Of a stretch of DNA of 64,000 bases, positions 21,971 to 25,531 are shown one piece after another. The position numbers and the translations under genes were made by a program. This DNA is from Thermococcus onnurineus NA1 (GTDB lineage: Archaea; Methanobacteriota_B; Thermococci; Thermococcales; Thermococcaceae): the NCBI RefSeq assembly GCF_000018365.1, contig NC_011529.1:558001-622000 (forward strand), given 5' to 3'. The notes beneath the pieces were generated by a model. That model did no database searches and was not told where the DNA came from. It saw only the letters and a list, made by a program, of their open reading frames with translations. How positions within the stretch are numbered: the first letter of the stretch is position 1; each line of letters begins with the position of its first letter.

Positions 21971-22157
21971 TCGTTGATCTGTGTGCTGGATAACCCACTG
22001 GGCCTAATAACACTACTTTGCCTGTGAAACACACAGCCCTAGGGTTTACTGCTCTGTGCACTTTTAGTTTTTGAAGTCGTAACCGAAAACAGTTTAGAGT
22101 CTGGGTGCGGCATGCTTAAATACGGAGAAATCCATTTAATACAGAGAGTGGTGCACT

Positions 22158-23144
22158 ATGAACGGCTTTAAATGTGAGAGGTGCGGTGCGCCTCTCGAGG
22201 TCTCTCCTGAAACGATAGTCGCTATCTGCCCCTACTGCGGCCATCCAAATCACATAAGCGGCAACCTGAAGACTGAGCACATCTACATCGTTCCTTCTCT
22301 GGACAAAAACGCCATAGCCAAAGCCTTCTGGGAGCGTGTTGGGAAAGACTTCGACTTAAAGCGCATCAAGGACGAGATAGAAATCGTGGGGATAGAAGGC
22401 CACTACGCCCCCTACTGGGAGGGTAAGGTTCACGTAGAGGGCACCGTCGAGTACATAAAGAAGGAGACAAAATGTCACACCGATTCTCAGGGGAGGACGC
22501 ACTGTCGCACGGTAGAACGCCGCTATCGAGAGAGGGTGGACGAAACCCTACGCCTTCTCGGTTCTGCAAGGAGGCAGGTAAGGAGTTTTGGCGTTGATGA
22601 CCTAATAACCCACTACTCCAAGACCCGACCCTCCGGAAAAAGACTTCTTGACCTTGAAGAGGACGAGTGGGGGCGGATAAAGCTTGAAATCCTGAACACC
22701 GAGATGGACGAGCACCATGCAGAACTCATGATGCACGAAGATGCAATAGACATTATTAGAGACAGATTTGCCAAAAAGTCCGACAGAATACTTCGCTTTG
22801 ATGTTACTGCTGGGGAACCTGAAAACGTTAGGCTTCTCCTCCTGCCCATGTGGACTGTATATTACCGCTACGGCAACTCCATCTTCCAGACAGTCTTTGC
22901 CGGCTGGGATGGAAAGGACGTCGCGGCTACGGAGCCCATGAGCACGGTTAGGCGTGCCCAATACCTTGCGGGGGTCGGCATTGGGACCTTCATTGCAGCC
23001 TTCGGTGCCGGGGCAATTGCGGAGTCACTGGTCTTTGCAGTCCTGGCCATAGTCGGCGGCGCCGCCTTGAGCTGGTTCGCTGGAAGCAAAGTCCTTGAGG
23101 GCCAGAGAATTGAGAGGGAGAGCTCCAGCCTCCTGGGGGTGTGA
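22158..23144 (+). CDS. Zinc-ribbon membrane protein (first of SPFH operon)
   Basis: 328 residues. The N-terminus has a zinc ribbon, CERCG and CPYCG within the first 30 residues. Residues 40-260 form a soluble region with CHTDSQGRTHC, a second possible metal site. Two adjacent membrane segments lie near the C-terminus (about 270-310) and a short charged tail follows. A similar architecture is found in the next gene, so the two are likely paralogues. The stop overlaps the following start. The function is unknown. The four-gene arrangement with an SPFH protein points to membrane organisation or envelope stress. Confidence 0.75.
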   Translation: MNGFKCERCGAPLEVSPETIVAICPYCGHPNHISGNLKTEHIYIVPSLDKNAIAKAFWERVGKDFDLKRIKDEIEIVGIEGHYAPYWEGKVHVEGTVEYIKKETKCHTDSQGRTHCRTVERRYRERVDETLRLLGSARRQVRSFGVDDLITHYSKTRPSGKRLLDLEEDEWGRIKLEILNTEMDEHHAELMMHEDAIDIIRDRFAKKSDRILRFDVTAGEPENVRLLLLPMWTVYYRYGNSIFQTVFAGWDGKDVAATEPMSTVRRAQYLAGVGIGTFIAAFGAGAIAESLVFAVLAIVGGAALSWFAGSKVLEGQRIERESSSLLGV

Positions 23145-23146
23145 TG

Positions 23147-24040
23147 ATGGAGGTTACCTGTCCTACGTGTTCCGCCACGTTTAAGGTTCCAGATACGGTC
23201 TCAGTGGCTACCTGCCCCTACTGCGGGACAACCTTTAGGGTAAAGACGAGTGAAGAGCTCATCGAGCACTTCTTCTTCCCACCCATGAAGGAGGATCCAG
23301 CCGGAAAGCTTCTCAAGTTTCTTTCGAGGCAGTACGGTGCGCCAGCAGACATAACGGGGGCGAAGGTCACGAAAAAAGAGCTACACTGGATTCCGGTTTA
23401 CTTTTTCTACCTCCACGGGAAGAGCGGCTCAAAGGAAACCGTTGAAGAAGTCTGCTTCCTCGGAATTCCTGCTGGTTCTCCCCTTAAAGTCCTCCTGCAT
23501 AACTATCCCTTTCCAGTCAGGGGAAAGAGGTTCTTTGAGGAGAGTGTAGTAAAGAAGGGAAAGTACTACGAGCCGGAAATGACGAAGGAGCAGGCAGAGG
23601 CCATAGCACGCTCCAACCTCGAAACTGCCCTTAAGTGGGAGGCCAAGGGGGAAGGGAGCAGGATAGGCGACCTTGAGCTTGAAGTGAAGTTCCTTGGTCT
23701 CGTCCACTATCCCGTCTGGGAGGTGCACTACGAGTACGGAGGGCAGACCTTTAGGAACTACGTTGACGGTACTGACGGGCGGGTTGTGAGGGGAGAGTAC
23801 CCCCTCATGAGCGAAGCGAGGAAAAAAGCCACGATCCTGGGCTTTGGAGTTATCGGGGGCAGTATTCTCATCGGTTTAATCGCCACCGCAGCAACCGGCA
23901 ATGGGATTGGACTTTTGGGTGCTTTTGTCGCCGGTGTTGCCGGTGCCGCGGGGATATTCTCCAAAGGCTCCGTCAGCAAAAGGGTGGTAAGTGAAGTCAT
24001 GAGGGTGGACAAAGAGAATGCTTATTTCCGCACAGTTTAG
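23147..24040 (+). CDS. Zinc-ribbon membrane protein (second of SPFH operon)
   Basis: About 298 residues. The N-terminal zinc ribbon has CPTC and CPYCG. A soluble middle part contains ELHWIPVYFFYLHG and HYPVWEVHYEYGG, echoing PYWEGKV and PMWTVYYRYGN in the preceding protein, which supports a shared repeat unit. Two membrane segments lie at about 225-270. Three candidate starts are stacked (GTG 23141, ATG 23144, ATG 23147); the last has the best spacing from GGGGGTG. Translationally coupled to the preceding gene. No function is known. Confidence 0.75.
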   Translation: MEVTCPTCSATFKVPDTVSVATCPYCGTTFRVKTSEELIEHFFFPPMKEDPAGKLLKFLSRQYGAPADITGAKVTKKELHWIPVYFFYLHGKSGSKETVEEVCFLGIPAGSPLKVLLHNYPFPVRGKRFFEESVVKKGKYYEPEMTKEQAEAIARSNLETALKWEAKGEGSRIGDLELEVKFLGLVHYPVWEVHYEYGGQTFRNYVDGTDGRVVRGEYPLMSEARKKATILGFGVIGGSILIGLIATAATGNGIGLLGAFVAGVAGAAGIFSKGSVSKRVVSEVMRVDKENAYFRTV

Positions 24041-24051
24041 GGGGTGTTGGA

Positions 24052-24546
24052 ATGGGGAAAGAGACTTCGATATGGGAAAAGCTTGAGCTGGTCATACCCG
24101 GTTTTCATGGGTACAAGAAGAAGGAGCTCCTGAGGGAAGACGAGAGGCTTGTCAGGGAAAAGGTGGCCGAAATACTAGCGGGAGCGAGAAGAGAGCTCGA
24201 AAGGGCCCTTCAGAGATGTGCGATGGTGAACTGCGGCCAGCTAGTGGCGATAGATAACCTGCGCAAGAGACTGGTAATGCTTGAGGGTAAGGTCAGGCAC
24301 GCTGAAGCGGGGTATGCGGGCTTTTTTGACAGGGTAAAGGTGAAGGAGCCGGAGCTTGAAAAGCTCATCCAGTATGACGCAAGGATGGTGGAGCTCGCTG
24401 AGGAGATCGCCAAGATGGCTGGGGTTATAAGGGGTGCAGTTTCTGACCCCGCAAGGCTCGGCGTGGAAGTCCTGAATCTCGATGACAAGATTAGAGAGTT
24501 TGAGGACACAGTTGAGGGCAGAAGCATGATTCTGAGAGGTGAGTGA
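24052..24546 (+). CDS. Coiled-coil protein of SPFH operon
   Basis: 164 residues, highly charged and almost wholly helical, with heptad-like stretches (residues 30-60, 65-95 and 105-150). The N-terminus LVIPGFHGYKKKELLREDE resembles the start of small bacterial helical proteins encoded near SPFH or zinc-ribbon genes; that comparison is from memory. There is no signal peptide or membrane segment, so it is probably a cytosolic partner at the membrane. It lies 11 bases after the preceding gene and ends one base before the SPFH gene begins. Confidence 0.7.
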   Translation: MGKETSIWEKLELVIPGFHGYKKKELLREDERLVREKVAEILAGARRELERALQRCAMVNCGQLVAIDNLRKRLVMLEGKVRHAEAGYAGFFDRVKVKEPELEKLIQYDARMVELAEEIAKMAGVIRGAVSDPARLGVEVLNLDDKIREFEDTVEGRSMILRGE

Positions 24547-24547
24547 A

Positions 24548-25531
24548 ATGGTGCAGGTCATAGAGTGGGTCAACCCCGGTGAAGACGAGATAATCTGGCG
24601 CTACCCCAACGAGGTCATCAAGTGGGGTGCCCAGCTGATAGTCCACGAGTATGAAGTGGCAGTCTTCATGCGCGACGGCAAAATATACGACGTTCTCGGC
24701 CCTGGGAGGCACACGCTGACGACCCAAAACCTTCCGCTCCTCTACAAGCTCGTTGGCGGTTCAAACAGCCCGTTTAAGGCGACGGTAATCTTCGTCAGCA
24801 TGAAGGAGTTCCAGGGACGCTATGGGGGAGAGACGCAGACAAGGGAGCTTGCTCCGATAAAGTACTACGGTGTCTACTGGTTTAAGGTGGCCGATCCCGT
24901 GCTTTTCATCACCGAGGTCGTCGGCGGTCAGAGCCTCTACGACGCTAATGATGTCACCAGATTCATCAGGGCCTACTTCAACGAGGGCATGATGAAGCAC
25001 CTCTCGGCTTACTCAATCGTCGACCTTTTCCAGAACCTTGATATGGTCAGCACACAGGTCAAGGTCAAGCTCATAGAGGACTTCAGGCGGCTTGGCCTTG
25101 AGCTGGTTGACGTCAAGATTGAGGGGGTAAACACGACCGACGAGTGGCGCCAGAGGCTCTTCTGGATTATGCAGACAGGAAACGCTCAATACGTCATGCA
25201 GATGGACACCACCAAGCAAGTTGCAGCGGAGCTCGGAAAGAGCTCTGGAGCGGCTATGGGCACAGGAATGGTGCTCATCCCGCAGTTGATGCAGCCTCCC
25301 GCACAGCCGGCTCAACCCTATGCCGGAGCTGGAGTTCCGCCCGCTCAGCCGCAGCAGCCAGCTGCTCCAGCAGCACAGCAACAGGAGATATGTCCCTACT
25401 GCGGCAAGCCCCTCCCCCCAGGAGCACGCTTCTGCCCCTACTGCGGACACCAGATCCACCGCTGTCCAAATGGGCATATAGTTCCTGAGGGAGCGAAGTT
25501 CTGCCCTGTTTGTGGGGCTAAGATTGAGTGA
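24548..25531 (+). CDS. SPFH (band 7) domain protein with two C-terminal zinc ribbons
   Basis: 327 residues. The N-terminal VIEWVNPGEDEIIWRYPNEV and VHEYEVAVFMRDGKIYDVLGPGRHTL are typical of the YdjI/virion-core type SPFH family; the domain runs to about residue 200. A proline/alanine/glutamine linker (about 240-280) leads to two zinc ribbons, CPYCG with CPYCG, and CPNGH with CPVCG. There is no N-terminal membrane anchor, so it probably associates with membranes through partners. The start at ATG 24548 follows GAGGTGAG. It is the last gene of the operon, and the zinc ribbons match those of the two membrane proteins. Confidence 0.85.
   Translation: MVQVIEWVNPGEDEIIWRYPNEVIKWGAQLIVHEYEVAVFMRDGKIYDVLGPGRHTLTTQNLPLLYKLVGGSNSPFKATVIFVSMKEFQGRYGGETQTRELAPIKYYGVYWFKVADPVLFITEVVGGQSLYDANDVTRFIRAYFNEGMMKHLSAYSIVDLFQNLDMVSTQVKVKLIEDFRRLGLELVDVKIEGVNTTDEWRQRLFWIMQTGNAQYVMQMDTTKQVAAELGKSSGAAMGTGMVLIPQLMQPPAQPAQPYAGAGVPPAQPQQPAAPAAQQQEICPYCGKPLPPGARFCPYCGHQIHRCPNGHIVPEGAKFCPVCGAKIE

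What the first reader, a model, noticed from the sequence alone, without database searches (positions are those of the whole stretch)
22158..25531. Four-gene zinc-ribbon/coiled-coil/SPFH operon
Two paralogous membrane proteins with N-terminal zinc ribbons, a helical protein and an SPFH protein with two C-terminal zinc ribbons are tightly linked. The shared zinc ribbons suggest physical assembly. SPFH proteins organise membrane microdomains; similar bacterial sets are tied to envelope stress. This archaeal arrangement appears to be a coherent, poorly described membrane system.
Basis: partly seen in the sequence, partly recalled or inferred. Interest (0 to 1): 0.65.

Follow-up and report, generated by a model that had tools for sequence, protein, structure and literature searches.

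The report
PspA-free SPFH membrane-scaffold operon
A four-gene archaeal operon, probably a membrane-upkeep scaffold like one known from Bacillus but with an uncharacterised helical protein where the usual repair protein PspA would be; its two core genes sit side by side across many archaea and some bacteria.

Summary
The four genes are at the stated place and the described features hold. A (22158-23144) and B (23144-24040) are paralogues with one N-terminal zinc ribbon and C-terminal membrane helices. C (24052-24546) is a helical bundle. D (24548-25531) is an SPFH protein (Pfam Band_7_1) without a membrane helix, ending in a double zinc ribbon. A-B-C-D order holds in 28 of the 30 same-genus genomes with A; the other two are cut by contig ends. 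The system is not special to Thermococcales. Searching with C alone gave 80 loci in many archaea and some bacteria, and D is next to C in 79. C has no Pfam model; its only clear relative is the functionally unnamed NCBIfam NF047596. The layout resembles Bacillus subtilis pspA-ydjGHI, but PspA is not over the cut-off in any of 61 genomes near the window, and C shows no detectable PspA relationship. Best reading: a PspA-free variant of the YdjGHI membrane scaffold, with C as the SPFH partner. Envelope-stress function is inferred from Bacillus, not shown. Unexpected: two species seem to have separately lost the operon by deletion between A and D zinc-ribbon codons.

The parts
22115..22123 (+). 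TATA-like box CTTAAATAC, likely operon promoter
   Evidence: exact CTTAAATAC in the 80 nt before A in 15 of 24 upstream regions, and [CG]TTAWAWA in 23 of 24 (L034 has CTTAAAAG). No significance test.
22158..23144 (+). Gene A: zinc ribbon - middle domain - C-terminal membrane helices, 328 aa
   Evidence: no Pfam model over its cut-off.
22173..22238 (+). A zinc ribbon (CxxC at residues 6 and 24)
   Evidence: (weak zinc-ribbon matches).
22227..22240 (+). 14-nt word TGCCCCTACTGCGG in A's ribbon, repeated in D; deletion junction in two relatives lies in this word
   Evidence: G021 keeps 13 of the 14 bases.
22962..23081 (+). A hydrophobic membrane region (residues 269-308)
   Evidence: Hydropathy.
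23144..24040 (+). Gene B: paralogue of A, 298 aa; weak PepSY/YPEB match at 146-216
   Evidence: PepSY E=0.0017, 19.1 bits, cut-off 24; model pLDDT 79.8.
23159..23224 (+). B zinc ribbon
   Evidence: Zn_ribbon_5 E=2.7e-6, 27.5 bits, cut-off 29.3.
23810..23971 (+). B predicted membrane helices (residues 223-276)
24052..24546 (+). Gene C: helical-bundle protein, 164 aa, distant relative of NF047596
24097..24126 (+). C signature PGFHGYKKKE (residues 16-25)
   Evidence: P16 G17 G20 Y21 K22 E25, and beyond it R28 and R35, invariant in 51 sequences.
24298..24330 (+). C second signature HAEAGYAGFFD (residues 83-93)
   Evidence: G87 and F92 invariant; A84, Y88, G90 at least 90%.
24548..25531 (+). Gene D: SPFH protein with double zinc ribbon, 327 aa
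24593..25159 (+). D SPFH (Band_7_1) domain
   Evidence: PF13421 residues 16-204, E=3.4e-32.
25391..25516 (+). D C-terminal double zinc ribbon
   Evidence: PF12773 residues 282-323, E=3.4e-10.
25433..25446 (+). Second copy of TGCCCCTACTGCGG, in D's first ribbon

Best explanation
The operon encodes a membrane-surface scaffold of the YdjGHI type that works without PspA. D, a soluble SPFH protein, forms the oligomeric scaffold on the inner face of the membrane. A and B, held by C-terminal membrane helices with their zinc ribbon and middle domain in the cytoplasm, recruit it (ribbon-to-ribbon or ribbon-to-D contacts). C, a compact helical bundle made in step with D, is D's direct partner and stands where PspA stands in B. 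subtilis, as effector or as part of the scaffold. The complex would maintain or repair the membrane under stress. Shown here: gene set, order, spacing, domain content, breadth of the C-D pair, absence of PspA over the cut-off. Inferred: contacts, topology, oligomers, membrane upkeep.
For: Order kept in every copy with all four genes in the genus. D is directly downstream of C in 79 of 80 loci chosen by C alone; two of the 80 seeded the query, leaving 77 of 78. D 89-94% identical to the window in 10 relatives against 57-79% for C in 22. A/B relatives in 47 of the 80 loci. In 37 loci a single B-like ribbon protein, without a membrane stretch in 36, is present; in 29 of these a small protein of 3-4 membrane stretches follows D. 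B. subtilis also has a Band_7_1 protein (control line), and YdjI is a soluble SPFH protein with a low-complexity region and C-terminal zinc finger that needs YdjG/YdjH for the membrane (PMC8581546). YdjG is reported to have zinc ribbons, a YpeB-related domain and a membrane segment (PMC11237479); B has a weak PepSY/YPEB match. PspA over cut-off in 0 of 61 genomes and in 4 of 33 genomes picked from the 80 C loci (two of these 33 seem to be among the 61 as well). In the phylum of G087 (Chloroflexota by its record title) C and PspA coincide less than expected: both in 5 of 121 against 19 and 61 singly, Fisher p=0.026; p=0.019 without the centre genome.
Against: No experiment. C shows no PspA similarity, so 'stands in for PspA' rests on gene set and on PspA's absence. 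Neither A nor B matches the TPM domain of YdjH. Of six C-bearing genomes opened, D adjoins C in one, lies about 5 kb off in one, and is absent from the fetched stretch in four. The C-PspA association is not corrected for kinship. D was not aligned with YdjI itself. Seven of 37 genus genomes lack the operon (one, G033, is 73% complete; one, G022, has a variant), so it is dispensable. Three of the 30 A matches are flagged with one TGA inside the matched stretch (G016, G020, G031), not examined.
Confidence: 0.55

Rival explanations
1. It is a membrane-protein quality-control scaffold (HflK/C- or prohibitin-like): D encloses or organises membrane proteins or proteases, C and A/B are adaptors, and membrane repair is not its job.
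For: SPFH proteins are proposed as chaperone-like scaffolds (discussion of PMC8581546; passages of PMC11237479). In one Chloroflexota locus C and D lie on the same strand on either side of molybdenum-hydroxylase genes (L165), which would suit a complex-assembly role.
Against: No protease match in the four proteins nor in the neighbours that were scanned, of a few loci only. D lacks a hydrophobic membrane stretch, unlike HflK/C (recalled).
Confidence: 0.25
2. It is an ordinary psp operon: C is a divergent PspA/ESCRT-III protein.
For: C is helical and sits in a Ydj-like operon; C-family proteins are among the top sub-threshold hits of a PspA profile (E 0.035 and worse).
Against: Profile-profile comparison of C with PspA: probability 0.19%, E 0.32, score 14.1, inside the range of 20 heptad-block shuffles (9.7 to 22.0) and below reversed PspA (17.6) (PspA profile of only six sequences). 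PspA_IM30 is not among the 25 Pfam families shown (of 82) for 51 C members. Best structural matches are unrelated helical bundles.
Confidence: 0.08
3. A and B are membrane-tethered regulators whose zinc ribbons bind nucleic acid, and D and C are their docking platform.
For: Ribbons resemble RNA-polymerase and TFIIB ribbons weakly; PMC9239133 suggests DNA binding for the YdjG ribbon (passage).
Against: D carries ribbons too, and SHOCT stands in their place in the Sulfolobales D, which fits protein contact rather than DNA binding.
Confidence: 0.07
4. It serves vesicle budding, which many Thermococcus strains show without ESCRT-III.
For: Thermococcus strains release vesicles and lack CdvB, and SPFH proteins are said to facilitate membrane curvature (PMC6524685, passages).
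Against: No direct link found; seven genus members lack the operon and their vesicle output was not looked up.
Confidence: 0.05

Closest known systems
Bacillus subtilis pspA-ydjGHI operon (YdjI SPFH system)
   Same: Soluble SPFH protein with low-complexity stretch and C-terminal zinc finger; a zinc-ribbon membrane partner; two membrane proteins; one helical protein; four-gene operon (PMC8581546, PMC11237479).
   Different: No PspA; C, not detectably related to it, is present instead and directly precedes D; second membrane protein is a paralogue of the first, not a TPM-domain protein; gene order differs (A-B-C-D against pspA-G-H-I).
NCBIfam NF047596 (LIMLP_15305 family, Leptospira by its name)
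   Same: All 51 aligned C-family members match it at E up to 0.1, best 1.2e-19; five others match over most of its length.
   Different: No score shown reaches the curated 210 bits (window C 18.2 bits; best shown 61.4). No function named; the one paper found names the locus only as a neighbour of a non-coding RNA (PMC7567364, passage).
SPFH-NfeD operons (stomatin/flotillin type, SPFH1/2/5)
   Same: SPFH gene in a conserved small operon.
   Different: No NfeD partner in the operon and no hydrophobic anchor in D (PMC2636767 passages).
Meth_adaptin ESCRT loci with an SPFH-coiled-coil-zinc-ribbon protein
   Same: Archaeal SPFH protein with zinc ribbon in a proposed membrane-remodelling locus (PMC10936438 passages).
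   Different: The operon holds no such gene and its upstream neighbours are HAD and SerK (genes further off not scanned); no Snf7 match in the genome (a search whose only control hit, Sulfolobus, was itself under the cut-off).

Membership tests
pspA-ydjGHI operon | PspA (PF04012) encoded in the set | tested here: not met
   No PF04012 match shown for the four proteins; 0 of 61 genomes over cut-off; C against PspA profile no better than shuffles.
pspA-ydjGHI operon | Soluble SPFH protein with C-terminal zinc ribbon | tested here: met
   D: PF13421 E=3.4e-32, DZR E=3.4e-10, no hydrophobic stretch.
pspA-ydjGHI operon | Zinc-ribbon membrane protein (YdjG-like) with YpeB-related domain | tested here: inconclusive
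   Ribbon and membrane helices present; PepSY/YPEB match only E=0.0017, below cut-off, and in 4 of 32 relatives at E up to 0.1.
pspA-ydjGHI operon | TPM-domain membrane protein (YdjH) | tested here: not met
   No TPM match in A (all 13 rows shown) or B (25 of 29 rows shown) up to E=1.
pspA-ydjGHI operon | Stress-dependent membrane recruitment | not testable with these tools
   Needs cell work.
Pfam Band_7_1 (PF13421) | Score over curated cut-off (24 bits) | tested here: met
   D 112.2 bits.
NF047596 LIMLP_15305 family | Score over curated cut-off (210 bits) | tested here: not met
   Window C 18.2 bits; best shown elsewhere 61.4 bits; a related but separate branch.
ESCRT-III/PspA superfamily | ESCRT-III fold | tested here: inconclusive
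   Not among the listed matches of the C model; absence from such a list is not proof.
SPFH-NfeD operons | NfeD gene beside the SPFH gene | tested here: not met
   No NfeD match among A, B, C, HAD, SerK.
Anti-phage defence systems | Match to a PADLOC model | tested here: not met
   0 matches for the four proteins at E up to 0.01.

The most novel reading that the evidence does not exclude
C-D is an old, PspA-independent membrane-maintenance module shared by archaea and bacteria, in which an unnamed helical family, not ESCRT-III/PspA, is the SPFH scaffold's partner, with a zinc-ribbon (or SHOCT) adaptor layer that lineages rebuild in their own way.
Probability: 0.35. Interest if true: 0.75.

Novelty: new variant of a known kind. 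Interest (0 to 1): 0.56.

Why it matters
None of the 37 genus genomes has PspA over the cut-off, so how these archaea mend or organise membranes is open. This operon is a small, bounded candidate in a group with working genetics (T. kodakarensis, recalled). It gives the unnamed C family a strong functional link, to YdjI-type SPFH proteins, across archaea and bacteria, and offers a direct test of whether PspA is replaceable in such scaffolds. The ten searches of the held open-access library (listings seen, up to 20 titles each) showed no paper that I could tell describes this archaeal gene set or the C-D pair; subscription papers and supplements were not covered.

Tried and rejected
C as PspA/ESCRT-III: rejected on sequence; PspA and ESCRT-III chains are not among the 50 rows shown for the C model in either list, which does not exclude the fold. 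C fold identity: VIA-align best IncA Z 14.3, rmsd 2.8 over 140 residues, then V-ATPase rotor chains and designed bundles; Foldseek had 0 matches at E 0.001 or better; I read this as a common helical arrangement, no relative named. B fold: no Foldseek match at 0.001; the best VIA rows cover the membrane-helix region (SPCS1 Z 8.0, 57 residues). Solved structures by sequence: nothing better than E=0.067 for D and 0.027 for the C profile. Defence system: no PADLOC match. Plasmid-borne C: none; D-like SPFH on 22 plasmid records at under 60% identity, not followed.

First-pass counting of D beside C gave 74 of 80; five of the six misses came from my ORF picker, and a stop-to-stop search with an iterated D profile gave 79 of 80. 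Both numbers are reported. The iterated profile was built from D hits in these same loci. The 80 are the best 80 of 270 relatives, so lineages close to the query are favoured.

The C-against-PspA table (p=0.026) has no kinship correction and is weak evidence. The 33 genomes are 33 of the 80 loci, picked by me for spread. The 14 Bacillota loci were picked from the 30 strongest of 46 genomes over the cut-off, not at random. NF047596 searched against whole genomes missed the window's own C, so that model alone under-detects C.

'Chloroflexota' and 'Bacillota' for searches come from the record titles of the centre loci L137 and L112.
Full report
WHAT IS THERE. The window lies at 558001-622000 of a 1,847,607-base single-contig genome; by size I recall Thermococcus onnurineus NA1, which no call confirms. 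Four genes on the + strand fill 22158-25531 with almost no spacing. A (328 aa) and B (298 aa) each have one zinc ribbon (CxxC at residues 6 and 24), a middle region (beta strands and helices in B's model) and C-terminal membrane helices, and they are paralogues. C (164 aa) is predicted as a helical bundle with good confidence (pLDDT 85.9, pTM 0.79). D (327 aa) has an SPFH domain (Band_7_1), a proline/glutamine-rich linker and a double zinc ribbon, and no membrane stretch. A HAD-family gene ends 187 nt before the set and the next gene downstream runs the other way. A TATA-like element (CTTAAATAC in the window) precedes A; [CG]TTAWAWA is found in 23 of 24 upstream regions examined.

CONSERVATION NEAR HOME. 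Of 37 genomes of the genus, 30 have A at E below 1e-100 and 29 have C at E below 1e-60; the one mismatch, G026, ends at a contig edge inside B. In 25 fetched loci the order is A-B-C-D on one strand; with the window, G006 and G017 that is 28, D being cut by a contig end in G017 and G025. In G031 A-B and C-D are on two contigs. Seven lack the set: G007, G019, G023 (no trace found just downstream of the HAD gene; SerK and HAD kept), G008 and G021 (remnants), G033 (73% complete draft, paralogue pair only) and G022 (a variant, below). D is by far the most constant member (89-94% identity to the window in 10 others; C 57-79% in 22 others). In the other 21 genomes of the class, A was found in none and C in six, all with D beside it, one D partial.

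BREADTH. A scan of genome contigs with a C alignment gave 270 relatives, the best 80 kept: 34 of the 80 records are named Bathyarchaeota/Bathyarchaeia/Bathycorpusculum; others are Nitrososphaeria, Brockarchaeota, Geothermarchaeota, Jordarchaeia, Sulfolobales/Desulfurococcaceae, Theionarchaea, Chloroflexota, one WOR-3 and one Bacillota. Two of the 80 (L070, L074) are the loci that seeded the query. A/B relatives occur in 47 of 80 at E below 1e-3: full A-B-(small membrane gene)-C-D in L130; C-D followed, sometimes after another ORF, by a small membrane gene and A-B in four (L094, L108, L119, L131); divergent A/B-like pairs in five Geothermarchaeota/Nitrososphaeria loci; a single B-like ribbon protein in 37 (32 of them named Bathyarchaeota or the like), without a membrane stretch in all but one (L118), with a small protein of 3-4 membrane stretches right after D in 29 of the 37. 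Some Chloroflexota loci carry a 172-173 aa membrane protein upstream of C (L113, L137, L145, L164); in L137 a DUF2207 gene precedes it and in L113 it has a C-terminal ribbon. In 14 Bacillota loci, picked from the strongest of 46 genomes with Band_7_1 over cut-off (98 searched), C lies within 1.5 kb of D in 13. Against constancy: in six genomes opened out of 19 of 121 Chloroflexota genomes with C, D is adjacent in only one.

WHAT C IS. No Pfam family is convincing: the best of the 25 families shown reaches E=0.0027 and no family matches more than four of 51 members. All 51 match NCBIfam NF047596 (a family named after a Leptospira locus, without function) at E up to 0.1, best 1.2e-19, though the window's C scores 18 bits against a cut-off of 210. 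Two signatures mark it: PGxxGYKxKExxRE near the start and HAxxGYxGFFD in the middle. It is not detectably PspA, and its fold matches only common helical bundles.

HOW IT PROBABLY WORKS. The closest studied system is B. subtilis pspA-ydjGHI. There YdjI (SPFH, zinc finger, no anchor) needs the membrane proteins YdjG/YdjH to reach the membrane and is itself needed to place PspA (PMC8581546: abstract and sections 3, 5, 7, 11 read). The window set has the same kinds of part except PspA and the TPM domain. PspA is not over the cut-off in any of 61 genomes near the window (19 had weak hits, eight genomes of them in open frames of about 1190 aa) and not in 29 of 33 genomes picked from the 80 C loci (the four exceptions lie behind L100, L110, L137, L145, all Chloroflexota by their titles). 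No PspA gene was found among the ORFs called in the 80 C loci. In one of the Chloroflexota genomes opened (G117) a PspA gene lies 7 kb from C, on the other strand. I therefore propose a PspA-free variant: A/B anchor and sense, D scaffolds, C is D's partner. Steps shown: the parts, their linkage, PspA's absence. Steps inferred: contacts, inner-face topology, oligomerisation, membrane upkeep. The negative C-PspA association in Chloroflexota (both in 5 of 121, against 19 and 61, p=0.026; p=0.019 without the centre genome) fits but is weak.

VARIANTS AND LOSS. G022 carries, at another place, C'-D'-328 aa-503 aa, where D' (frame broken in this draft) ends in a SHOCT domain instead of ribbons; Sulfolobales L141 has the same layout, with SHOCT E=1.7e-8. 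This looks like a transferred variant in which SHOCT takes the place of ribbons; no tree was made. In G008 and G021 a remnant joins the start of A's ribbon to the last ribbon of D at the codons for the shared CPYC(G) word. A single-gene tree of the neighbouring HAD gene (23 sequences) puts G008 with intact G003 (support 0.99) and G021 with intact G011 and G030 (0.78 and 0.95), so the loss seems to have happened twice. Such a deletion removes all four genes at once.

NOVELTY. The kind (zinc-ribbon/SPFH membrane set) is known from Bacillus, and an SPFH-zinc-ribbon protein is noted in methanogen ESCRT loci (PMC10936438, passages). The PspA-free four-gene form, the C family and its tie to D were not found in the literature searches listed under Why it matters. 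Hence 'new variant of a known kind'.

Noticed in passing
L023 7204-7362 (G021) and L024 6876-7041 (G008): Two apparently independent operon deletions joined A's first zinc ribbon to D's last one at the shared TGCCCCTACTG word; the start codon is lost in G021 and the frame is broken in G008.
   Followed up: yes
L154 1398-5474 (G022 contig C46): Divergent C-D pair with SHOCT in place of D's zinc ribbons, plus 328-aa and 503-aa cysteine-bearing proteins, laid out as in Sulfolobales L141; possibly acquired from elsewhere. D-like gene has a broken frame in this draft.
   Followed up: partly
L016 6894-8869 (own genome 426893-428868): A second A/B-like pair (about 31-33% identity to A and B) without C or D, next to a gene I take from its sequence for a TIP49-type ATPase (by eye, no family search). 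Such an A-like gene is seen in ten genomes of the genus, with its B-like partner in nine (the tenth, G016, is at a contig end).
   Followed up: partly
L165 1214-7740: Chloroflexota locus where C and D lie on the same strand on either side of xanthine/CO-dehydrogenase-type genes and XdhC.
   Followed up: no
L079 9487-9822 and 28 other loci: A small protein of 3-4 predicted membrane stretches follows D where the B-like protein lacks membrane helices; it may supply the anchor in trans.
   Followed up: partly
L113 270-785, L137 7424-7942: Chloroflexota membrane protein upstream of C has a winged-helix-like segment (PCI E=1.1e-5 in L113; HTH_DeoR E=4e-4 in L137), and in L113 a C-terminal ribbon.
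   Followed up: no
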